From the NCBI GenBank assembly GCA_020912385.1, contig CP087209.1, positions 2,418,001 through 2,482,000 of the forward strand: a stretch of DNA of 64,000 nucleotides. Reading direction: 5' to 3'. The notes under the pieces were generated by a model. The model saw only the letters and a program-made list of their open reading frames with translations, searched no databases and was not told the DNA's origin. Position numbers and translations under genes: made by a program. This document shows positions 25,337-63,636 of this stretch, piece after piece; within the stretch, counting starts at the first letter, position 1, and each line of letters starts with the position of its first letter. Source of the DNA: Neofusicoccum parvum. Taxonomy: Eukaryota > Ascomycota > Dothideomycetes > Botryosphaeriales > Botryosphaeriaceae.

Positions 25337-26351
25337 TGTAATGTAGTGTGGTCGTAGCAGTGTTGCTCAAGTGAAGAGAGTGAGTCGCAAGGGCAAGAAG
25401 TGAAGATTTTTGAAGACGGAGACTTGACAATGAGAGTGGGGAGGAAGACCCTGATTGTCAGATCAACGTGGATTGTAGATGATCATTCCAGGCGGAAAGG
25501 AGCTCGGGCAAAGGGGTTTTTATATTCTGCTGCAGCCGTTCGCATCAAACACAACTGCTCCGTCGACGGACGAAGGCCGAGCCAAGTCCGAGAAAATGAT
25601 CGCCGGGGGAAGGGTCGGGAGTGATTGTGATTGGCGGGCGCTCCCGTGCATGCCGATAGCGTGGAAAATATTGCTCAATTTGAGATACTGTTGGAACCAG
25701 TAGAACAAAGGTCAATCCGAAGAGCGCTGGCTGCTTCGAGCAGGTCAAAGCGACCGGGGGGCGAATATCCACCGGGCGATAAAGCACGGCTCCAATGGAG
25801 GCTGGTCTGTCAGTATGGCGCCAGTCTGCCTCGACCGGCAGGCTGGCATATTTCTGCGATCTTCGACTGCCAGGCACGCATTCTGATGGGGGAATTTGTC
25901 AGTTGACGTGAACGTGCATCCTCGTCCACGCGTGGGCGGCAGGTGGTGAAAACAGGCGGGGCTGCAGGCGGTGAGGGTGGGCGGAATCCAGCCTTTGTTG
26001 GCTGCAGGCGAGGCAGCGATGATGGCGCCAAGCGAGCGACACGCAGAGGCCTGCAGGACGGTTTGGCGCAAGGGTGCGAGTGCTGGAAGGGTGGCAGGGG
26101 GTGGTTTGGGCGGTGACGGCGACGGGGTCACTCTCCCGCGTGTCAGTGCGCGATCTAGCGCCGGATGTCGTCGTCGACTCAGACAAAGTCAGTCCAGCAG
26201 AGCGCGCCTGAGCTCGGCGACGCGACGGCTCTTCCCCCACCGCGCGCCATGTCCAGACCTCCACCCTCCACCGCAAGGCCAGCCATGAGATGACCCCGAG
26301 CCGATAGGCACATCGCGACCACCTCCAGAGACCCACCGCCCGCTGCCCGCA
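25337..26351. other. Divergent intergenic / promoter region
   Basis: Upstream of both the small minus-strand gene and ALO1. GGGTTTTTATATTCTGC near 25514-25530 includes a TATA-like TTTATA element; reverse-oriented, it could serve the minus gene about 190 bp away. No other gene is seen. Confidence 0.45.
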
Positions 26352-28091
26352 ATGTCCGCCAGCGCGCTTCCCGCCCGCGTCGATGACGAGCTGTCCAAGC
26401 TCGACCCCGCCGTGCCTTTCCGCGCCTCCAAGACGCACACCCACCACACCTGGGCCCGCACCTTCCACTCCTACCCGGAGCTCTACATCCGTCCCGAGTC
26501 GCTCCCAGAGATCCAGAAGGCTGTTGTGCTTGCGCGACGATGCCGCCGCCGCATCGTCCTCGTGGGCTGTGGTCACTCGCCCAGCGACCTCACCTGCACC
26601 TCGGCCTGGATGATGAACCTGGACAAGTACAACAGGGTGCTCCGTGTGGATAGTGAGAAGGGCTCAATGCTCGTGCAGGGTGGCATCCGCCTGTATCAGC
26701 TTAATGAGGCCGCAAAAGAGTATGGGCTCACGATGCCGAACCTGGGCAGCATCAACCAGCAGTCCATCGTGGGTGCCATGTCAACTGGAACCCATGGCAG
26801 CAGCACCAGACACGGCCTGCTTTCTGGAGCGGTACGCAGCCTGCGACTGGTCCTGGCCAATGGTTCCACGGTCCTGTGTTCGCCTGAGCAGAACGTCGAC
26901 CTCTTCCGTGCAGCCCTCGTGTCGCTCGGCGCACTGGGTATCATCGTTGAGGTTGAGTACCAGATGGTGCAGCACACCAACATCGAGTGGCAGCAGACTT
27001 TGAAGCCACTGAGCTATGTGCTGGCTAAGTGGGAGAAGGGCCTTTGGGAAGAGAAGGAGTTCACGCGCGTGTGGTGGCTGCCATATATGAAGCGCGCCAT
27101 CATTTGGTCGGCCGAGAAGACTGAAAAGCCATTGCGTCCACCCACAAACAGCTGGTATGGCGGTTCTGTAGGCTTCCACACCTACCACATTCTGCTGTGG
27201 CTGTCCAACTACATCCCTCCCATCCTCCCGGCCATTGAGTGGTTCGTCTTTGGCATGCAGTATGGCTTCAGCGACAACACCACCACCTCTGCCATCGAGC
27301 CCATGCGCACTGGACTCCTCATGAACTGCCTCTACTCGCAATTTGTGAACGAGTGGGCTCTTCCGCTCCACAAAGGGCCGGAGGCTATCACTCGCCTCTC
27401 AGCCTGGATCAACGGAGACGAAGAGACCGCCAAGATCCCCTTCTCTTCTCGTGGCGTCTGGGTGCATTGCCCTATCGAGGTCCGCGTCGCCGATACCTCG
27501 CGTAGCAGCCAACCGCGCCCCTTCTTGGACCCCAGCTCCCCCAACGGACCGACTCTCTACCTTAATGCCACCCTTTACCGTCCGTACCACAAGGACCCGC
27601 CCTGCCACGAGCGCTACTACGAAGCGTTTGAGTGGTTGATGAAGGATATGGGCGGCCGCCCGCACTGGGCCAAGAATTTCCGCACCATCGACCACGCCGT
27701 CCTGTCGGAGATGTACGGCGCCGAGCTGGACCAGTGGCTCACCGTCCGCAACGACGTCGACCCTGACGGCATGTTCACCGGTGCCTGGCACCGCCGCGTC
27801 CTGCTGCCGCCGGTGCAGCAGCTGCCCCGCATGGCTCTTGAGGAGAAGGAGATTGCCCGCCGCTCGAGACGCTCCGGCGGCGTCGACTGGATCGGCGAGC
27901 AGGCCGTCTGGCGCACCCCCCGCAGCAGTTCCAGCCAGGAGAGCTTCGATGTCTTGCACGGTGCCGAGGCCGAAGCGAGTCAGCTGCTTGATGCTGCCGG
28001 CACGGAATCGTTTGATGAGAAGATGGAGGAGGAGGTGCATGGGAGTGTGGTCAGGGGGTTCACGGGTACACAAGTCTTCAACAAAATGTAG
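26352..28091 (+). CDS. ALO1: D-arabinono-1,4-lactone oxidase
   Basis: Intronless 579-residue protein. ALO oxidises D-arabinono-1,4-lactone to dehydro-D-arabinono-1,4-lactone (D-erythroascorbate) with O2, making H2O2, the last step of erythroascorbate synthesis; the yeast enzyme sits in the mitochondrial outer membrane. Residues about 35-210 form the FAD-binding type 4 (VAO/PCMH) domain: VGCGHSPSD (71-79), where His75 is the expected site of covalent FAD linkage, and LGSINQQSIVGAMSTGTHGS (131-150). The remainder is the ALO domain, with the family hallmark GGRPHWAK (434-441) and a closing DPDGMFTGAWHRRVLLP. Hydrophobic stretch YHILLWLSNYIPPILPAIEWFVF (about 278-300) may contact membrane. After residue 490 the tail is long and divergent. 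Length is slightly above yeast Alo1 (526). Confidence 0.95.
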   Translation: MSASALPARVDDELSKLDPAVPFRASKTHTHHTWARTFHSYPELYIRPESLPEIQKAVVLARRCRRRIVLVGCGHSPSDLTCTSAWMMNLDKYNRVLRVDSEKGSMLVQGGIRLYQLNEAAKEYGLTMPNLGSINQQSIVGAMSTGTHGSSTRHGLLSGAVRSLRLVLANGSTVLCSPEQNVDLFRAALVSLGALGIIVEVEYQMVQHTNIEWQQTLKPLSYVLAKWEKGLWEEKEFTRVWWLPYMKRAIIWSAEKTEKPLRPPTNSWYGGSVGFHTYHILLWLSNYIPPILPAIEWFVFGMQYGFSDNTTTSAIEPMRTGLLMNCLYSQFVNEWALPLHKGPEAITRLSAWINGDEETAKIPFSSRGVWVHCPIEVRVADTSRSSQPRPFLDPSSPNGPTLYLNATLYRPYHKDPPCHERYYEAFEWLMKDMGGRPHWAKNFRTIDHAVLSEMYGAELDQWLTVRNDVDPDGMFTGAWHRRVLLPPVQQLPRMALEEKEIARRSRRSGGVDWIGEQAVWRTPRSSSSQESFDVLHGAEAEASQLLDAAGTESFDEKMEEEVHGSVVRGFTGTQVFNKM

Positions 28092-37350: not shown

Positions 37351-38755
37351 TCAGCTTGTACGATTTTTGTTTGTTGGGTTACGATGAGAAAAGCGAGGAG
37401 ACGATCGTTTTGATGCACCAGTTTCATTTTATCCACCTCTCCATTCGCCTGGGGCGACCCGGAGTTCTTTCTTATCATGGCAACAATGAGTTTCCTTGTC
37501 CTTTTCCCAATGGCATAAGAGAGTCGGGGTGTTTGACTTCTAAGGGCGAAATGCGTACAGACTATCCGAGTTGATGCAATGGATTGAGCATGAATGATTG
37601 GATCAGGAATGGATGGGTCGGGATGGTACGGGAGGGACGCAAGAAGGGGTGGGAGGGAGGTGTGTTGTAGGTCTTTCTCCACAATGGTTGTGTCTTCTAT
37701 CTCATAGCGGAACCGGACTACTTACTTTCTTTCCTCTGTCCCTCTATTCTCAGACTCCTGTCCCCATCTTGCACGGTTTCCTCGGTTTTATGTCTACGCG
37801 CGGAATGCCATGCATGAGCGCAAAGAAATCATTCGGTCATCCAGTCATGCATCCCCCCAATCCTACCTTTCTCTGTGTATGTGTTTTTAGGAAAGTTCGC
37901 CTGGGGTTCTTTCTTTTCTTTATACAAGCAACGATGGCACAAATGACGCATGAACGAGTTCGTTTTGAATACAGAGGGTGTTGAAGTCCAGCAGGTTGGA
38001 CAGTTGGTTGAAGGATTTATCAGAAAGAGAACAGGCCCGCACAAAAGAGCGTGTATGTAGGAGGCCCTTTGCTTTTTATCATGGCGCAATGGCCAATGAT
38101 GAGGAAATGTTTCCTTCACCATGTTGCCGATTCGCGTTCGCATTTCACGACACGTCCGGCGTTTTTTTCCCAGCAGCATCTTAGACAAATTCTTCCGAGA
38201 GGACACCCTCTTTTCTCCACAACCATCTCCATCTTCTTGCCTCCTTCCCTCCTCCCCTTCGGAGCCGCCCGACCGGACGCGTCAGAACGCGCGCGCTCCC
38301 CGCCGGCCTCTGCTGAGGGTCACACGCGCAGGGGAGGGCGCAACCCGGCGCATTGACCGGCCGGCCGGCCGTCTCACGCGCGATCATTCCGGCTTTCTCC
38401 TCGCCCAAATCTCCCCATCTCTCCACGCGCCGCCCTGCTCCCCTTCCCTCCCCTCCCCTCCCCTCCCCACTTTTTACGGTGTGCGGAACGGGAAGGACCG
38501 CCCGGCAGGCAGGCAGAGGCAGGCAGGCAGACAACGTGCGCGCGAAGCCGAGTCGAGCTCCGGGCGCGACCACAGCCGCGCGCACGATTCGCCCATGCCG
38601 CCAATTTCTCTCGAGACCCTGCTCTTTCACTTACGTACGAATCGCTTTCTCCCTCAGCACCTCGTTTCCCGCGCCTCTTCCCTGGCCCTCAAGCACACGC
38701 GCCGGCCGGCGCGAGCTCTCCCTAACCCGCGCGTGCGCGCGCGCCGCGGCGCGGG
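37351..38755. other. PBS2 3' flank, non-coding
   Basis: Probable 3' UTR, then CT- and G-rich sequence. A (GGCAG)n-like stretch lies near 38504-38530 and CCCCTCCCCTCC near 38448-38468. No gene recognised. The 420-codon open frame from 38121 is rejected because it is carried by low-complexity and homopolymer sequence. Confidence 0.5.
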
Positions 38756-38893
38756 AGAAGCCTTCAGACGATTGAAGTTGCTCGCGCGCGCGGGTGATTG
38801 CCGTGGCCGTGGCCGTCGCGGAGGATGCCTTTCCGAGCGTCCAGCCCGCTGCCGGAGGTTGCCTTGCTGTCGACGTTTGACGGTCGACGACGG

Positions 38894-38897
<4 letters not shown>

Positions 38898-38926
<29 letters not shown>
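38898..38926. repeat. 29-nt poly-G tract
   Basis: Uninterrupted run of G on the + strand at the left edge of the repeat array. It could form a quadruplex, and is also a place where the assembly length may be wrong. Confidence 0.9.
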
Positions 38927-39141
38927 AAGACGGAACTGCCCGATGGGGAATGACGGCGAGCGTTTGGGCGGTGGAGCGACGGAGGGTGCCGGCCAAGCTC
39001 GGCGTGGGCGTGGTGGGTGGTGGGTGGTGGTGGTGAGGACGCCGTTTGGACGGTTGGGGAGACGCGAGGTGCGCTGGATTGGTGGGCTGCGGATCGGTGT
39101 CGGCCTTCTCTTGCTGCTCTGGCCTGGGCCTGGTTCCGGTT

Positions 39142-39153
39142 GCTGTTGTTGTT

Positions 39154-39188
<35 letters not shown>

Positions 39189-39190
39189 TG
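39142..39190. repeat. GTT/GTC trinucleotide microsatellite
   Basis: Tandem GTT then GTC triplets (about 15 units) in non-coding sequence within the left part of the array. Confidence 0.85.
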
Positions 39191-39539
39191 CGCCCGCGGA
39201 AGCGGCCGAAGCCGTTTGCTGGGCGGCCTTCTAGAAGGCGGCGGGTCGTCCGCCGTCTGCTTTGGGGGCTCCCGCAGAGGCGTCTGGAACCGCCGGGGGA
39301 CCAGGTGGTCGGTAGCACCTTCGAAGGAGCGAGGCCTGGCGGGCTTCGGCGTCTCTTGGCCTGGGGGGGACGGGCGGCGATGAAGAGTACCGCCGAGAAA
39401 GGATTCCGACGTTCGAAGTTGCGTCTGGTGTTGTTCCTGCAGTGCCAGTCGAGCCTGGCACGGGAGACTTACCTCGGCGCGGGAAGGAGTCCTGACCCAT
39501 TACGCGGTAGGCTACCGCGCACCTCGCGTTGGCTTTTGG

Positions 39540-39600
39540 CTTGCTTGCCTTTCATTTTTCATTTTTTATTTTCCCTTGGCTCCCCTCACTTGTTTTCTGC
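39540..39600 (+). promoter_or_regulatory. T-rich tract, possible promoter of an array transcript
   Basis: Isolated pyrimidine/T-rich stretch (TTTCATTTTTCATTTTTTAT) in otherwise very GC-rich sequence, just downstream of the first clear repeat copy. Such tracts mark many fungal promoters. This is only a candidate; no transcript is known from sequence alone. Confidence 0.25.
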
Positions 39601-41452
39601 GCGATTCCTTTGGTCCGCTAAGGCGACGGAGCCGTTTCTTGCTCGACCTGGGCCTATGGGAGTTTCTTGCATCACCGTACCAGAGGCGCGGGCGTTGCTC
39701 CGGTGGGCAAGAGAAAAAGAGCGAAAGGCGCGCCAACGACTGCTGCAAAGCCTTTCTCCGTGGCCACGAAGCCGATCGCCAGCAACGCGTGCGCGGCGCC
39801 GTGGGGACGTGCAGGAGCAAGCTTTCCCTCTGCGACGCCCGTCCAGCCCACGACAACACTTACTTAGCTGCATTCCGTGATTTGCAATTGTCTCTCGTCC
39901 CCCGTCTTGGCCGCTGTTCCTGGGCGATCTGGGCCACACGGCGGCAGCGGTCCGCGTGTGCCGAGAGCCAGCAGCGTCATCGCGGTTGTTGTGTGGGGTT
40001 TGGCGCTGGGGAGGCGTTTTTTGCCGTGCTCCCCCTCCGCGTTCTGGGCCTTCCAGAACGCGCGGGACCTCGTCGCCGCTGAGGCGGGTGGCTGCCCGGA
40101 ATGACCCCGTCCGACGTTCGACGCTGCTCGCTGCTCGCGTGCGGCCGTGACGCCCAGCGCGCAGGATCGTGTGGTGTGGCTTTTTGGTGGTGGGGACAGC
40201 GGCCGGGTCTATTGAATGGTCGAGGCAAGACAGCTGGCGGCCTTCGGGATGCTCCATCAGACGCTCGAGCTTGGGCGTGGGGATTACGAGAGACGAATCC
40301 GTGAGGCCCACGCGCCTGTGCTGGGGCGCAGGTAGTCAGTAGAAGGCAGCCGTTTGGCTGAAGTGTGGTCGGCCAGCCTTGCTGCGGCAAACCTTGCCGT
40401 CGCTGGGATTAAGCACGAGCAAGGGTTGTGCAGACGTCCGAGGTTGGCAGGGATCGCGGCGAGCGCGCTGCCTGCATGTGCCTGGGTGGCCGGACGGGGG
40501 AGTCGTGGGCTGCTCGAGAAGGGCCTGGCAAGGCAGGCTGGGGCCCGCCGCAGCAGCGCAGGATTTCACCAGACGTTCGAGGTTGATGCTGCCGCTGCCA
40601 GGCGCGTGCTGGAATGGGGCACATTCCTCTCAGAGGATACTTGATGCGGCAAAGTAGAGCAATCCTGCGCACCGCCAGACGTTCGACGTTGCGTGCGGTG
40701 GCCCTGGGGAGGTCCGCCAGCCCCGGCGCATCTGAGCGCCCTGGCCCTGGGCCGGCTGGTCTCCACAGCAGTGGTCGCAGCCGATAAACTTGCCGGTCGA
40801 CCCCGGGCCTCGGTGCACGGAAGGATTTTGCCAGACGTTCGAGGTTGTGCGCAAGGAACACCCCAAATGCCTTCTAGAAGGTCGAGCGCGGGACCGCACA
40901 CCAGCACTCAACCGTGTCCCGCGCCTCCCCACGCAGTGCCCGAAGCGGCAATCCTGGCCGCCAGATGCGTAGGCTAAGCTCCGAAGGATTCTTGCGACGT
41001 TCAAGGTTGCTGCGTCCGCACCGACAGTCGCGCCGTCTATACGGACGTACCTGCACATCGCCCGCGCGGGCCCTGGATGGCATGCACGCACCGCGCTCCG
41101 CTGCTGAGCATTAGATCCACCGAAGGAATGCCCTCTACGTTGGAAGTTGCGCAGGCCGGGGCGGCGGCGGCAGAAGCAAAGACGCCCCCGTGCATATGCC
41201 ACGCTCACGGCGACGGGGAGATGCTGGGGCGCGGGTGCGCGATGGGGTGGACCACACCAGTTTCCCGAATAGGCAAATGCAAGGGTGTGTAGACGTTCGA
41301 AGTTGCGCCGCCAGCGGTGACCCGTGTGCGGTGCAGACTCCCGCCTGGTACGGCCGTGTGGTAGATGCTGGCGGCGAAATCGAGTATCCCCGGAGGATTT
41401 CCCCGAGCGCAGCGCCCTGGCGGGCTGGGGTTGTGGGAAGAAGCAAGTGCGG

Positions 41453-41497
41453 AGGCTGAGGCTGAGGCTGCGGCTGCGGCTGCGGCTGCGGCTGCGA
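41453..41497. repeat. GGCTGA/GGCTGC hexanucleotide repeat
   Basis: Three GGCTGA-type then about five GGCTGC units inside one spacer of the array. It sits close to a decayed core at 41390, and the local interval is longer than usual (233 bp to the next core). Confidence 0.85.
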
Positions 41498-44400
41498 AAA
41501 GGAGCACGACTGCAAGGCCAGAAGGCACGACGAGGCGCGGCAGGGGTTGGGCAAAGGTCGGTGTGCCGGTGGCTACCTGACGTGGCCGAGGACGCAGCCG
41601 GGGACCTGCGGACAGGCCCCCTGAAGGATGCAACGCGACGTTCGACGCTGCCGTTGTCTCTATCAGTTTTTGCTTTTTGCCTGCGCGGCGGGAGAAAGGT
41701 TAAAAGGGCCCCCGGGTATCACGATCCTGCAGATCCTGGAGCGCGCCGCGGCGAGCAGCCGCCTCTCTCAATCGCGCCCCGATGCGGCAACCCACGCGGC
41801 CCACTTAATCAATTAGGCTCGCAAGGATTTTTGCGACGTCCGAAGTTGCGCTGCGCGTGGTCCGTGGAGGGCGCATCGTGAGAGGGGAGGTCTGTGGGGA
41901 GAAGTATACCACCTATCTCAAACGGAGGCGCGGAGTACGACATCGGCCCGGCCAGCGGTGCCACACGTGCATGTCCATCCTGAGGGATCCGGCATCCTCC
42001 CACTGCACATGCGTGGAGCGCGCTGAGAGGCGCGACTGCGTGGTCAGTTCGCAGAGCACTGCACGGTTCGGGGCGAGCGGACTTAGCTGCACCACAGGCC
42101 CGGCCGTAGGCCCAGCCTGCCCAGCTGCCCCGGCGAGGCAGGATGGTTCACGATGGCACGCTGGCGCTGCTTTGGAGAGCTGATGCGAGCTTCGTAGCCT
42201 CAGCCTCGGCGCCATTGTGGAGCTCGCCAGCCGGAAGGACCCTTCAGACGTTCAAAGATGCTGCCAACCACGGACTTCCCCACATCGTGAGGGTCGAGAA
42301 CGCGGTGCGCTTGTCCAGGACGTCATGCCGGCTGCTTCAGACGTTCGACGGCCGTCTTGGACCCCACCGACAGCCTGGAAAAGACTTCAGCCGCATGCTC
42401 GATTGGGAAGTCGTCAAGCGCTTCGGGGCCTTCCATCAGCCACTGCGCAGTGCCAGCATGGAAAGGACTCCTTTCCGGCCCTCCAAGACGATCTTGGACT
42501 GCGCTTAAGATTCATGAAGAGTTAAGCCACGTCGCCCACAAGGGGGCCGCGTGTGCCAGCAACAGCCAGGTTCGGAATGGGAAGGCCATTAGCGTTCGAA
42601 CCATGATGGTTCCTGCAGCGATACTCACATGGAAGGATTTTTGCTACGTTCGAAGTTCCCAGTGCTTCCAAGGCTCCCGTGTGGGCGCGAGTGACGGCCC
42701 GGCCAGCAACGGAACGACGGTTGATGTCCAAGAGCCTCCGTCGGCCATGGCGCCGCACCAGCCCCATGGTCGCTCTTCCGGTCACAACGCTTTGTCCATC
42801 AGCTAAGTACCAAGAAAGCAAAGAAGATCCTCCCGCCTTTGCTGCGTTCAAAGTTCTTCTTTGAAGAAAGCTAAAGATAATTGAAGACGGGGGGCCCCAC
42901 CAGTAGGAAACCAATAGTGTTGAAGCCCGGGCCGGATTGGCAATTGCCGTCCCGGGATGCCGTGGTCCACAATCACTCGCCGAACAACAGTGACCGGGGA
43001 GGAGTTTTTGCTGCGTTCGAGGTTCCTCCTGTGGGCTGTGCCAGTACAGGCAATTCACCAAGCCGGGACCGTGACATCCCCACGTCGGGGTAAGTGAAGC
43101 CCGGATTTGGAATGAATTCCCCGAGAGAGCAGGCCCTTCAGCAGCCACCGAGCGGTCATGACACGGGAGGATTTTTGCTATGTTCGAAGTTCTTTCAACA
43201 GACTACTCCTACTGTAGATAGAGTGACAAGTTAATGCTCCAGGCATTCCCAACCTGGGATGGGAAACCGATACCGAGGGATCATCAAGGTCTCTGACCAG
43301 CCACCAGGCAGGAGTAACCGGGGAGGATTTTTACCTACGTCCAAAGTTATTGCAATAGGATATACTAAAGTAGATTCGTTTCAAGCCAGAACTCTCTTTA
43401 CCCTACGCCTGCAACAGAAGGCCGTGGCCGTCAGCAACTTCGTGATATCCGGCCAGCCACAATAGCAATAGTTGCACGGAAGGATCCTTCCTGCGTTCGA
43501 AGTTGTTCACGCAGACCATACCACCGAGTCCGCTAGAAGGGGATCCAAAGTGTCCGCGTCTCCAGAATTGAGATGTCAGTGCTCTCCATACCATCGGTGT
43601 CTCCCATAATCCACCGCGGCCCCGAGCACCCGGGCAGGATCCGTCCCTATGTTCGAAGTTGTCCCATAGACCTCAGGGCCAGGCCAGACACAGCATTGGT
43701 CCCGGAAATATGCGTACTTGGAGCCCACTCACGCCTGCAATCGGGACTAGAAGACTGATGGGCTCTCGAAGTCGGTCTTCCACAAGCCCACCAGGGTTCC
43801 AGGAACCTGGAAAGGATTCTTACCTACGTTCGAAGGTGCCATCTGGAGCACCGCTAGAAAGAAACTAAGAACGCAAAAGATTTCTCCACGGGGATTCAGG
43901 AAGGCCGGGGAAACCACCAGAGCGTAGCTCGCAGTCGGAGTGAAGCAGTGGTCAAGCCACGGGGGGCTGGACGGCAACAATTGCCTCGTGCGAAGTTGCT
44001 CTGGGTATAGGGCCAAGGATGGATCAGAACGGGGCAGCTCCATGTTGCGGAGAAAGGCCTATCAGGTTTGGGATGGAGCGACGATTGCCGTCCAGCCCAC
44101 AAGCAAAACGCGGCCATCCTGAGGCCTGAGCTTGGTATCCCACCGGCCGCGCAAGCAGTAGCAGAGCGGTAGTCAGATCCTTTCCTCTTTCCTACGTTGG
44201 AAGTTGACTCAGGCTTACGACGCCAAGGAGCGAGGTATGAGGGATAAAGTATCGTGAGCGCCAAAAGGTGCTCGACGACGTGGGCGTAGCTGCTTGGGCG
44301 GTAATAGTTGCTCAAGGACCCCGGACCCGTCGAGCCACCGGGGTCATGGCAAAGAATCCTTCCATCGCTCCTACGTCGAAAGTTGTTCCTCCAGACCACG

Positions 44401-44868
44401 CCAATCGGCACGGTGCAGCGGGCAAGTATCCGAGTGCAGTCAAGGCCACTCCGATATCGCGGGCGCAGCAGCATGGACGATGCGGTTTCCCTGGGACCCG
44501 CCGCATGAGCTCAGACGTGAGACCCTGGAAGGATTCTTGCTGCGTTCGAAGTTGGCGGACGGGAGCCGTCAAAGGGTTCGCTCGCAGAGGGCGGGAGCAC
44601 GTCAGATGTTCCGGAACGCGGAGCGCCTGCGGCAGCGTGCTTGCAAAGGCTCTCTAAGCCAGCCACCGCGCAAGAACGCGCTCGAAGGATCTTTGCTGTG
44701 TTCGAGCATGGCAGACCGAACCCCCGAGGCCAGACGACCACGACGTTCGAGCACGCACGGCCGCCGTTCGAGAACACGAGGTGCTGGGAACGGACGAGGG
44801 CCGACGAATCGACCGGCGCCACGGGCGCGCTGGGGAGAAGGAAGGATCCAGTGCTACGTTCGACGTTG

Positions 44869-45852: not shown

Positions 45853-48157
45853 CTACTCCTCGTCCGTGTCGGTGTCGGTGTCCGTCTCGCTGGTGTCCGT
45901 CTCCTCATCTCCCTCCGTGTCACTGCCGCTCGACTCCTCGACGCGACGGACCTTGGGCTTCTTGACCTCGCCGCCCTTCATGGCAGCCATCTGTCCTGCT
46001 AGGGTATCTGCGTGTCTGTTAATATTGCTTCGAGAGACTGAGCAGGGCCGTTTGCGCTTACCTTCATCCGGTTCGCTGATCTCCTCTTCCTCCTCGATCT
46101 CCGCCGCCTTTGACGCGTCGTCGACAACCAGCATGACATCCATCTTGGTATCCATGCCAACGTAGCTGTCACACACAAGGTGCATGGTGAACTTGTATTG
46201 GCCAGGCTGGGGCGGGGCACCGAACTGCATCTTTAGAGTCTGGACGTTGTAGGTCGGGTTGCCCTGCTCATCGAACAGCGGCTTGTCGAACTTGGTGAAC
46301 GTGAACGGGGGAACTGCGATCTTGGCTTGTCTGCTGTCGGCTAGGAAAACATGCCATCTCGGAGAGTGGTCCCTGGCGAAGTACGGAGCGAATGCAAGCG
46401 GGGGCTGACCAGCCGATTCAGCCTTCTTGGCCTCCTCAGCCTCCACACCCTTCTTGCGGCCATGAAGAGCATCCAAGTCACCTTCCTTGGGGTCCACATC
46501 CTCGAGATCCTTCTCGCTGACAGCTGGAACGTTGGTGGAACCGGGAGGAATGATACGGGCCTTGACGACGAATTGAACCAAGCTGCTGGGAATGATGACC
46601 TTCTCGCCCAGAACCTTGAAAAATGCCTTTTCGACTTGCAAATGCGGAAGCTGGCTGGCAACCTTCTCGGCGGTGGCGTACTGGCTCTCCGACAGAAGAC
46701 CGGGGCCAATCGCGCGGCGACGTCTCTCATCAGCAGGCAGGTGCATGAAATCCTGCACACTCAAGTGTACCCTTGCGCTGTCGCCTTCAACTGCGCGAAC
46801 AACCGAGGGAGTGAAACCAGGAAGTTGAAGAAGCGGCGAGGAAGCGGGAGGAATAGCCTGGAGAATGTTTTGCGAGGTATGGTACGAAGACAGGATAGGC
46901 GGGGTGTTCCCGTAGGCGAGGCCAACAGCGAAGAAAGCGTCGTTGAGCTTGTGGGCGATGGGCGCAACCTCGAACTTTTCTGGAGTAAGTTAGCAGAGTT
47001 GCTTGAGAAGGCAAAAGGACAGGCGCAGGCCATACCGGCATTAAGTGTGGGATCCTCAAGCTCCACGCGTCCAAGATAAGCCCAGAGCAGAGCAAGAGCC
47101 TTCCTGCGCGCGCCTTCGTCCAGCTCCTCCAAAGTCCGACGATCCTTGACACTGAGACCTCCAGCGAGCGGCGAAAGCTCGCCCTCCTGGAAGAGCTTCG
47201 ACTCGACCTTTGACAATCCAGCCTCTGCCTTGTGGCCTCTGAGCGCCTCCTCAAATTCGGTTCCGGTGGCGAGAGCGGCAAGGACACCGCCCTCGTTCAG
47301 ATCAGGCTTGTATTCCTTGAAGATGTTGCCAGCACTGGAGACCAGGACCTTTTCCTTGGTGACGCGCTGGGTGCCGTACCACCACTTGCCAACCAGGTAG
47401 GGCAGTACAACGCCCAGGACAATTCCATAGCCAAGCAAGACATATCTGCCGTGACCCTCGGTGACGATCCACTTGGGAAGAGCGATACCAATGCTGAAGC
47501 TCTGCTTGCCGTCGGGATGACCGTATTGCAGATAGTTGTTGCGGACTTCCTCGTCGGTAAGCGCCTTGAAGGCCTTGGTGAATTCGACCCATTGGTCGTT
47601 GATGGCCTCTATGGTCAAGTTCTTTGCCGGATCGGGCTGCAGCTTGTCGGGATGGTGGGTGAGGGAGAGTTTGCGGTAGAACGACTTGATCTGCTTCTCT
47701 GTCGCAGACTGCAGGCCGTTAGTGGGAGTAGCTGCAGATTGCATGGAGCGCACTTACCCTTGAGACCCCCAGAACCTCATAAGGATCCCAAATCTTGGGC
47801 ACGGTCCGCGCAGTCACGACCATGAGGTAGACCATCCATGCCATGACCAGCCAGCCGCCGGAAGCGAGCAGGATCCTTCCCAGCTTGCGCTCCTGCCTGC
47901 GCAGCTTCTTGCGCTGACCATCGATGAGGTCAACATGCTCGGGGGCAAAGTCGGACTGTATTCTCGGAGCGGTATTCTCGAGGTCCTTGCTGCGGGTGAG
48001 GAGCGAGATGGTGGTCGGAATGGTTACCAGACCGGTGATGGTGATGACGAAGTAGGGGAAGAATTGTCCCTATGACTGGAGTCAGTGTGTGGGTTGGGTG
48101 CGGGAGCGGGGCGCAAACGGCGCGTACCTGTTCGTCATAGTTGTAGTCGGTAGACAT
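45853..48157 (-). CDS. SEC63: Sec63, ER protein-translocation subunit
   Basis: Five exons: 48128-48157, 47758-48069, 47036-47708, 46062-46979, 45853-46007, totalling 2,088 nt and 695 residues in phase. Sec63 joins the Sec61 channel with Sec62 and, through a lumenal J domain, recruits BiP/Kar2 for post-translational import. Visible parts: MSTDYNYDEQGQFFPYF; membrane segment 1 at about 14-35; segment 2 at about 72-95 (WLVMAWMVYLMVV); J domain DPYEVLGVSRSATEKQIK from 105 with HPD at 133-135; the Sec63 signature YGHPDGKQSF; segment 3 at 203-225; then the Brl/Sec63 domain to about 640, and an acidic tail (SDTEGDEETDTSETDTDTD) that in yeast binds Sec62. The 54-nt last intron is in frame without a stop, so retention would be translatable (see findings). 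Confidence 0.96.
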
Positions 48158-62985: not shown

Positions 62986-63636
62986 CTAGTAGAAGAAACC
63001 GAGAATCTTGCCAGCAACGTGCTTCCTCCTGGCCTCCTCGTCTGCAAGTTGGTTAGCGTCTGTGCAAAACGCAATATTGTGGAGCAACTTACGGTCCATG
63101 ATGCCGGCGGAGGTGGTGAGGACGATGCAGCCGAACTGACGAGAGGGAAGGAGCTTGACGACCCACTTCTCGAGGTCCTTGAGCTGGACGTTGTAGCGGG
63201 GGGAGATGACACCGGTCTTGTTGAGACGGCCGTTGAGCTGGACAACGATCTTGCCGTTGCGGTGGTCATCGACCTCCTCGAACTCGCCGATGTAGCCTGC
63301 ACAAAGAGTTCAGCATGTTGCAAAAGATTAAACGTTGGAAATCACAGAAAATCAGAAAACGTGTAAGATCTTTGCAGGGTTTGATCTCTCGGACACTTAA
63401 AGGCCAAAGGCTGTGGTGCATGTCGAACCATTGGCTAGTTATCAGCCCGAGGAGGGGCAGGGTGGGTTGGGCGGCGCAAAGTGTATAGATATAGTCCACG
63501 TACCGTGCTTCTGCATGACGTGCAGGAACTTGATGATGACCTTGGAGCTGGGCCTGATCAGGACCTGGCGCTTGCCGGCCTTCTCGGCGTTGTTGATGGC
63601 GTTGAGCGCATCGTTGAGCACGGAAGTCTTGACCAT
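62986..63636 (-). CDS. RPS22: 40S ribosomal protein S22 / S15a (uS8)
   Basis: Three exons: 63504-63636, 63093-63296, 62986-63041, giving 393 nt and exactly the 130 residues of the family. uS8 is an early-binding small-subunit protein in the central domain of 18S rRNA. The protein runs [100 protein letters not shown] and ends GKILGFFY, with no deviation from the family core that I can see. Intron 1 (207 nt) is longer than the others here; in yeast RPS22B the intron hosts a snoRNA, but I see no convincing one in this sequence. Confidence 0.97.

What the first reader, a model, noticed from the sequence alone, without database searches (positions are those of the whole stretch)
38756..44868. Long array of a 28-nt motif spaced at roughly nucleosome intervals between convergent genes
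About 27 clear and 6 decayed copies, all in one orientation. Intervals from 42631 onward are 191, 176, 167, 156, 157, 156, 175, 162, 204, 178, 174, 157 and 156 bp. The spacers are nearly unique, so this is not a young satellite. The motif stays readable while everything else has drifted, which suggests selection on the motif (a protein-binding box like the CENP-B box of alpha satellite, or a small RNA unit). The 8.5-kb location between two gene 3' ends means neither neighbour's promoter explains it. I know of no described fungal element with this plan.
Basis: seen in the sequence. Interest (0 to 1): 0.93.

Follow-up and report, generated by a model that had tools for sequence, protein, structure and literature searches.

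The report
Arrayed DNA tag between convergent genes
A fungal chromosome carries about 28 copies of a short DNA tag, many spaced roughly one nucleosome apart, between the tail ends of two genes, and the same tag forms other unrelated-looking arrays elsewhere in the genome, which suggests binding sites for an unknown chromosome protein.

Summary
The array is real. A 28-nt motif occurs 27 times above background at 38753-44868, plus one doubtful copy, all on the + strand; shuffles give 0.47. Twelve of 25 intervals are 150-180 bp, against 1.6 by chance. The organism is Neofusicoccum parvum or a very close relative; the neighbours are PBS2-like and SEC63-like genes, tail to tail.

The motif is not confined to this window. 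Its 3' core, MKACGTTCGARGTTG, is over-represented genome-wide: exact 12-mer 54 hits against 12 for the reversed control, strongly clustered (24 close pairs against 0.65 expected). Further arrays lie on contigs 2, 3, 4, 5 and 6; between arrays little beyond the core is shared. The 5' half differs by locus. Of 11 strong single sites, 7 lie between convergent genes.

Best reading: homotypic arrays of sites for an unidentified sequence-specific DNA-binding protein. Most likely function, inferred: an architectural or boundary element in convergent gaps. The CENP-B box is not met; the Pol III B box lacks its required C in 24 of 26 copies. Cross-species conservation could not be tested.

The parts
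38753..44868 (+). whole array of 28-nt motif copies
   Evidence: 28 matches >=8 bits, all +, shuffle mean 0.47; 27 of them >=14 bits
38753..38780 (+). motif copy, 25.0 bits
39394..39421 (+). motif copy, 29.2 bits
40099..40126 (+). motif copy, 24.5 bits
40246..40273 (+). doubtful decayed copy, 11.8 bits, no better than the best background match (11.9)
40419..40446 (+). motif copy, 26.1 bits
40558..40585 (+). motif copy, 30.0 bits
40664..40691 (+). motif copy, 18.9 bits (core intact, 5' half weak)
40820..40847 (+). motif copy, 30.7 bits
40982..41009 (+). motif copy, 32.5 bits
41122..41149 (+). motif copy, 26.3 bits
41278..41305 (+). motif copy, 16.9 bits (core intact, 5' half weak)
41623..41650 (+). 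motif copy, 23.5 bits
41821..41848 (+). motif copy, 35.0 bits
42233..42260 (+). motif copy, 29.7 bits
42631..42658 (+). motif copy, 36.1 bits (best)
42829..42856 (+). motif copy, 17.7 bits; alignment puts its upstream module 7 nt further 5'
42998..43025 (+). motif copy, 30.3 bits
43165..43192 (+). motif copy, 30.4 bits
43322..43349 (+). motif copy, 28.3 bits
43478..43505 (+). motif copy, 35.7 bits; its 5' half is a perfect 14-bp palindrome GGAAGGATCCTTCC (43478-43491)
43634..43661 (+). motif copy, 30.6 bits
43811..43838 (+). motif copy, 28.6 bits
43971..43998 (+). decayed motif copy, 14.2 bits
44179..44206 (+). motif copy, 23.5 bits; alignment puts its upstream module 7 nt further 5'
44358..44385 (+). 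motif copy, 18.0 bits; alignment puts its upstream module 7 nt further 5'
44527..44554 (+). motif copy, 35.4 bits
44683..44710 (+). motif copy, 19.5 bits
44841..44868 (+). motif copy, 30.2 bits
35208..37097 (+). left neighbour: PBS2-like MAP kinase kinase exon, 3' end facing the array
   Evidence: Pfam Pkinase E=6e-46; gene name PBS2 from the finding and from reading the protein
45856..47753 (-). right neighbour: SEC63-like gene (two overlapping exon ORFs), 3' end facing the array
   Evidence: Pfam Sec63 E=2e-4 (below the curated cut-off) and DnaJ E=4e-9

Best explanation
The array is a homotypic cluster of binding sites for an unidentified sequence-specific DNA-binding protein. The shared recognition sequence is a 15-18-nt core, strong part MKACGTTCGARGTTG with a weaker TTS just before it. 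A little 5' of it sits a second module that differs by locus: GGAAGGATT here, a GANTC-type module on contig 2 and part of contig 3, ACGGCCGTA on contig 6. Arrays grow by tandem duplication of a unit of about 140-165 bp; the spacers then decay and both modules are kept. The sequence supports these steps; growth by duplication is seen directly only on contig 2. Inferred: the protein and its partners sit in the linkers of a phased nucleosome row and make a boundary, insulating or loop-anchoring element that separates the two converging transcription units. Overall confidence is about 0.4; confidence that it is a protein-binding-site array of some kind is about 0.75.
For: Non-random, one-strand, near-periodic array. 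Genome-wide excess of the core: 54 exact against 12 reversed; MGACGTTYGAMSTTS 78 against 10; MGACGTYNGARGTTS 84 against 16; CTRYGTTSRAAGTTS 25 against 0; with one mismatch allowed the excess is smaller, 168 against 64. Clustering: 24 pairs within 10 kb, 18 of them outside the window, against 0.65 expected. Arrays of 6-26 copies at >=13 bits on contigs 2, 3 (two), 4 (two), 5 and 6; in 237,589 held bases outside the named stretches only 3 hits of >=16 bits, each at a spot fetched because of a hit. Between arrays no alignment exceeds 49 nt, and 168 of 192 alignments contain the core in both partners, so the core is not one dispersed satellite. The contig 2 array still shows homology beyond the motif (94 nt at 79%; steps of 138-166 bp), the young form of what the window shows old. 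On contig 6 GGCCGTA stands 6-9 nt from the core in 7 of 8 forward sites with differing letters between, so both parts seem to be kept separately. GANTC lies within 14 nt 5' of the core in 20 of 65 non-window sites against a mean of 2.2 and a maximum of 6 elsewhere. Strong single sites: 7 of 11 between convergent genes, 3 tandem, 1 undetermined (read by eye; binomial p=0.008 against 25%, 0.04 against one third). Arrays are GC-rich with CpG o/e 1.0-1.16. Convergent genes delineate loop boundaries in S. pombe, CTCF is restricted to animals, and fungal boundary elements are said to remain to be examined (PMC10246852, passages seen).
Against: No binding protein, chromatin map or expression data. 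No cross-species test was possible. The convergent bias rests on 11 sites with crude gene calls, some weak on one side (L008, L031; also the tandem calls L026, L027). Arrays C3a, C4b and C5 lie between tandem genes and the C9 pair seems to lie between divergent ones, so convergence is not a rule. Only a few arrays exist, too few for a general loop anchor. About 156 bp spacing may come from the duplicated unit length rather than nucleosomes. Helical phasing is not robust: p=0.0065 for 18 window intervals, 0.045 for all 25, 0.08 with 156/157 counted once, 0.63 for contig 2 and 0.12 for contig 6.
Confidence: 0.42

Rival explanations
1. Ordinary cis-regulatory sites of one transcription factor: dense enhancer clusters acting on nearby coding or non-coding genes, with single sites elsewhere as a small regulon.
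For: Arrays on contigs 5 and 4 (572 kb) lie between tandem genes, where promoters are possible; the gene after the contig 5 array has a fungal transcription-factor domain. U2 snRNA lies 2 kb from the right contig 3 array and a 5S rRNA gene 1.5 kb from the contig 2 array, in the same gaps.
Against: At this locus both genes have their 3' ends towards the array. Most strong single sites lie between 3' ends, not at promoters. No core upstream of U2, 5S or snR44. Pfam of 20 flanking reading frames shows no common function, though 10 of the 20 had no family at all.
Confidence: 0.2
2. RNA-level function: a long non-coding RNA crosses the array and the motif is a repeated RNA-protein or small-RNA unit.
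For: One orientation here (26 of 26 at >=13 bits), on contig 2 (13 of 13) and at C4:572 kb (6 of 6).
Against: Mixed strands in the contig 3 arrays (5-/3+ and 8-/4+), contig 5 (6+/2-) and contig 6 (7+/1-). Folding energies around 90 sites show no feature at the motif beyond what base composition suggests, and inverted repeats just upstream are only weakly raised. No Rfam match at gathering score in any array scanned. Tandem duplication alone explains single orientation.
Confidence: 0.13
3. Polar replication-fork or transcription barrier, like S. pombe RTS1 or rDNA terminator arrays (both recalled): repeated sites of one polarity stop forks or polymerases between converging genes.
For: Polarity of several arrays and position between convergent 3' ends.
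Against: Too few sites to be a general terminator; mixed polarity in contig 3 and 5 arrays; no replication data.
Confidence: 0.1
4. TFIIIC-bound extra B boxes without Pol III, as in yeast boundary sites.
For: In register, 16 of 26 copies match 6 of the 7 specified B-box bases and 2 match all 7. In S. pombe, a deletion spanning five B boxes weakens boundary activity of the IR-L element (PMC4502379, passages seen).
Against: The required 3' C is present in 2 of 26 copies, while an invariant G and T sit where the B box is free. No tRNA gene found in the arrays.
Confidence: 0.06
5. Decayed minisatellite without function.
For: Contig 2 shows clear unit duplication.
Against: Spacers here have lost similarity while the core stays; largely unrelated arrays share the same core; single sites show no common flanks.
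Confidence: 0.06
6. Centromere or pericentromere marked by a CENP-B-like box.
For: The length resembles a short regional centromere; those of Zymoseptoria are about 10.3 kb (PMC4589918, passages seen).
Against: Two arrays 1.9 Mb apart on contig 4, and no group of five or more listed on contigs 1, 7-18 (the list was cut). GC- and CpG-rich. CENP-B box matched at no more than 7 of 9 essential bases. No shared motif in Zymoseptoria centromeres.
Confidence: 0.03

Closest known systems
CENP-B box of alpha satellite and mouse minor satellite
   Same: A 17-bp protein box preserved in otherwise unrelated satellite repeats (PMC5615363, passage seen).
   Different: Sequence fails the essential-base test; arrays are not one per chromosome, are GC-rich and lie in ordinary gene gaps.
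C. elegans pairing centres (HIM-8 and ZIM proteins)
   Same: Clusters of a short motif read by a protein family, with versions by chromosome (PMC3820632, passage seen).
   Different: Here one core is common to all loci and only the 5' module differs; not one per chromosome; no meiotic data.
S. pombe TFIIIC boundary elements (IR-L/IR-R with five B boxes)
   Same: Fungal boundary made of a small cluster of protein sites (PMC4502379, passages seen).
   Different: Core lacks the B box's 3' C in 24 of 26 copies; no heterochromatin data here.
Clustered CTCF sites, including macrosatellites with one site per unit (both recalled)
   Same: Oriented arrays of a composite site of similar length with an upstream module.
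   Different: CTCF is restricted to animals (PMC10246852, passage seen); the binder here is unknown.

Membership tests
CENP-B box | nine essential bases NTTCGNNNNANNCGGGN (recalled consensus) | tested here: not met
   of 26 copies the best is 7 of 9 (2 copies); 14 have 5 of 9
CENP-B box | bound by CENP-B and located at centromeres | not testable with these tools
   no ChIP data; two arrays on contig 4 and no large group listed on contigs 1, 7-18 argue against
TFIIIC B box / ETC-COC site | GWTCRANNC with 3' C (recalled consensus) | tested here: not met
   2 of 26 copies carry the C; 16 of 26 match 6 of 7
TFIIIC B box / ETC-COC site | TFIIIC occupancy without Pol III | not testable with these tools
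   needs ChIP
Homotypic array of binding sites | same motif many times, more than chance | tested here: met
Homotypic array of binding sites | motif recurs in unrelated sequence contexts | tested here: met
   no alignment between arrays exceeds 49 nt and 168 of 192 contain the core; single sites share only the core
Homotypic array of binding sites | a protein binds it | not testable with these tools
   no binding data
Boundary or insulator element | lies between transcription units, preferring convergent gaps | tested here: inconclusive
   7 of 11 strong single sites convergent; of the groups W, C2, C6 and C10 convergent, C3b convergent apart from U2 snRNA, C3a, C4b and C5 tandem, C9 pair apparently divergent, C14 not classified
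Boundary or insulator element | blocks contacts or spreading | not testable with these tools
   needs Hi-C or reporter assay
Young satellite DNA | units alike along their whole length | tested here: not met
   window spacers near shuffle range; similarity beyond the motif clear only in the contig 2 left part
Known RNA family or tRNA cluster | Rfam or tRNA match in the array | tested here: not met

The most novel reading that the evidence does not exclude
This is the first sequence-defined boundary or pairing code in a filamentous fungus: one protein reads a common core at a few tens of places, mostly between convergent genes, and partner proteins read a locus-specific, often palindromic module beside each core, so that each array has its own address on a row of phased nucleosomes.
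Probability: 0.2. Interest if true: 0.93.

Novelty: new variant of a known kind. Interest (0 to 1): 0.76.

Why it matters
[quoted passage not shown] A compact core with arrays at known coordinates makes that question directly testable: fish the protein, map it, delete one array. It also suggests an evolutionary route: tandem duplication of a ~150-bp unit followed by decay of everything but the binding modules, with a young (contig 2) and an old (window) example in one genome.

Tried and rejected
RNA structure: mean folding energy in 60-nt windows around 90 sites tracks base composition by eye, with no feature at the motif; no formal test was made. Inverted repeats upstream of the core: the windows at -75 to -25 and -50 to 0 give the largest excess over shuffles of 14 windows, about 0.2 to 0.3 score units at 1.8 to 2.5 standard errors, too weak to claim. 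A second motif shared by the arrays: the 7-10-mer tables show further core copies and GC-rich words, no second strong motif; GATTCATG recurs in 7 loci but at no fixed distance. snRNA-type promoter element: core absent upstream of U2, 5S and snR44. Coding repeat: many intervals are not multiples of three, and the two ORFs tested have no homologues. Contig 6 spacer similarity is inflated because neighbouring windows overlap physically; I did not use it. RIP: the window array shows none (TA/AT 0.60, CA+TG index 1.22), but the contig 5 and 6 arrays are borderline (0.88 and 0.84; 0.93 and 0.92), so I make no RIP claim for those. Literature: the sequence words gave 74 papers, 25 listed; two were opened at the matching passage, a U12-intron paper and a Tilletia marker paper in which the 12-mer lies in a PCR primer; the rest were seen as titles and abstract starts only. 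Searches for fungal convergent-gene motifs (0 papers, 5 papers, 4 listed), insulators (71 papers, 15 listed) and Neofusicoccum or Botryosphaeria centromeres (1 paper) listed nothing that by title, abstract start or the passages seen describes this element. That covers only the held open-access library. Two of 13 single sites with flanks (L003, L006) were dropped before the 11-site count because their core scores (12.6, 16.9) were under 19; 18 further exact single sites on contigs 8-17 were never seen in context.

Full report
What is there. The window is contig 4, 2,418,001-2,482,000 of a 44-Mb genome in 18 contigs. A 600-aa reading frame at 26289-28088 is 100% identical to a Neofusicoccum parvum protein and 99% to one of N. 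ribis, so the organism is N. parvum or a very close relative. Between a PBS2-like kinase gene (+) and a SEC63-like gene (-), both with their 3' ends towards it (Pfam shows a protein kinase, the name PBS2 comes from the finding and from reading the protein), lies a stretch of about 8.5 kb without recognised genes. In it a 28-nt motif occurs 28 times at 38753-44868, all on the + strand. Shuffled sequence gives 0.47 on average and at most 3 in 200. The rest of the window has 6 matches, the best 11.9 bits, so 27 copies stand clear and the one at 40246 (11.8 bits) is doubtful. Of 25 core intervals 12 are 150-180 bp (1.6 expected if placed at random) and 5 are 156-157 bp (0.11 expected). The rest of each unit has drifted: spacer alignments are at or slightly above the shuffle range, and column information outside the motif is low.

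It is one of several arrays. The exact 12-mer CGTTCGAAGTTG occurs 54 times in the genome against 12 for the same pattern read backwards. Wider forms give 78 against 10, 84 against 16 and 25 against 0; with one mismatch allowed it is 168 against 64. The 54 exact hits form 24 pairs within 10 kb, 18 of them outside the window, where 0.65 are expected. I fetched flanks of the clusters and found, at >=13 bits: window 26 copies (all +), contig 2 at 1206-1210 kb 13 (all -), contig 3 at 2620-2624 kb 8 and 2627-2630 kb 12 (both mixed), contig 4 at 572-574 kb 6 (all +), contig 5 at 615-616 kb 8 (6 +, 2 -), contig 6 at 1776 kb 8 (7 +, 1 -), and groups of 2-3 on contigs 10, 14, 1 and 4. In 237,589 bases of the large stretches outside these groups there are 3 hits of at least 16 bits, each at a place fetched because of a hit. 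Between arrays the longest alignment is 49 nt; of 192 short alignments at E<=0.1, 168 contain the core in both partners and 24 do not, the longest of those 35 nt. They are therefore largely independent arrays with one common core, not copies of one satellite.

Anatomy. The common part is MKACGTTCGARGTTG with a weaker TTS just before it. Other arrays have their own 5' module: GANTC-like on contig 2 and contig 3 (15 of 27 sites with GANTC within 14 nt, about 1 expected), GGCCGTA on contig 6 (7 of 8 forward sites), GGAGTC in 3 of 6 sites at contig 4 572 kb. On contig 6 the spacing between module and core varies from 6 to 9 nt and the letters between differ, while both ends stay. In three window copies the alignment puts the module 7 nt further upstream. 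Several modules are palindromic (GGAAGGATCCTTCC at 43478, ACGGCCGT on contig 6, GGAGTCGACTCC on contig 4; read), but a test over 90 sites gives only a weak excess of inverted repeats. The contig 2 array shows the process in a younger state: units step by 138-166 bp and two share 94 nt at 79%, and alignment scores of 46 and 38 stand against a shuffle maximum of 18. The window looks like the same process later on; that order is inference.

Setting. Predicted reading frames place the window, contig 2, contig 6 and contig 10 groups between convergent genes, the right contig 3 array likewise apart from a U2 snRNA gene in the gap, and the left contig 3 array, contig 4 572 kb and contig 5 between tandem genes; the contig 9 pair seems to lie between divergent ones and contig 14 was not classified. 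Gene calls are crude, and 10 of 20 flanking frames tested had no Pfam family. Of 13 single sites with flanks in hand, 11 score at least 19 bits; 7 lie between convergent genes, 3 between tandem genes, 1 is undetermined (read by eye; L008 and L031 of the seven have a weak gene call on one side; the seven include the sites on contigs 1 and 4 counted above as groups of 2-3). That is p=0.008 against one in four, 0.04 against one in three. Array DNA is GC-rich (0.62-0.66) with CpG o/e of 1.0 to 1.16, where the three coding stretches tested have 0.72-0.93; the window array shows no RIP signature, contig 5 and 6 are borderline. A 5S rRNA gene shares the contig 2 gap and U2 the right contig 3 gap, but neither has a core upstream.

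Mechanism. Shown: an over-represented, clustered core, kept while its surroundings decay, with a second local module in several arrays. Inferred with good confidence: proteins contact these modules. Inferred with less confidence: the arrays organise chromatin between converging genes. The reasons are the position, the spacing near one nucleosome (which may also simply be the unit length), and the published view that convergent genes delineate loop boundaries in S. pombe, that CTCF is restricted to animals, and that fungal boundary regions remain to be examined (PMC10246852, passages seen). A transcription-factor enhancer cluster, an RNA-level role, and a polar fork or polymerase barrier remain possible. 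A centromere is unlikely: contig 4 has two arrays, no large group is listed on contigs 1, 7-18, the DNA is GC-rich, and Zymoseptoria, another Dothideomycete, has no centromere motif (PMC4589918, passages seen).

Known relatives. The CENP-B box works alike in being a preserved box inside unrelated repeats, but membership fails. The Pol III B box fails at its 3' C in 24 of 26 copies, although 16 of 26 match the other six bases. C. elegans pairing centres are the closest in logic (PMC3820632, passage seen). I file it as a new variant of a known kind: homotypic arrays of binding sites, here with a common core plus a locus-specific module.

Limits.

Noticed in passing
window 63313-63452 (-): H/ACA snoRNA snR44, apparently inside an intron of a gene that reads like ribosomal protein uS8/RPS22 (host identified by eye only).
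   Followed up: partly
L035 8308-8500 (contig 3, 2632308-2632500, +): U2 snRNA gene in the same gap as a core array, about 2 kb away.
   Followed up: partly
L033 2550-2669 (contig 2, 1211550-1211669, -): 5S rRNA gene in the same long gap as the contig 2 array, about 1.5 kb away.
   Followed up: partly
L046 6190-6963 (contig 10): The gene ending just before the contig 10 core sites encodes a Csm1/Pcs1 monopolin protein (Pfam E=5.5e-31).
   Followed up: no
window about 38898-38926: Uninterrupted run of about 29 G at the left end of the array; a (GTC)n tract follows at about 39145-39183.
   Followed up: no
contig 18, 469.8-470.3 kb and 745.4-745.6 kb; contig 11, 656 kb; contig 12, 1112-1116 kb; contig 10, 1878 kb: Further pairs of core matches that may be small arrays; their sequence could not be fetched.
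   Followed up: no
contig 3, 2627.0 and 2628.3 kb; contig 4, 572.9 kb; contig 1, 3372.8 kb: Hairpin-like inverted repeats lie shortly 5' of some cores, each with its own sequence (read by eye); the average over 90 sites is only weakly raised.
   Followed up: partly
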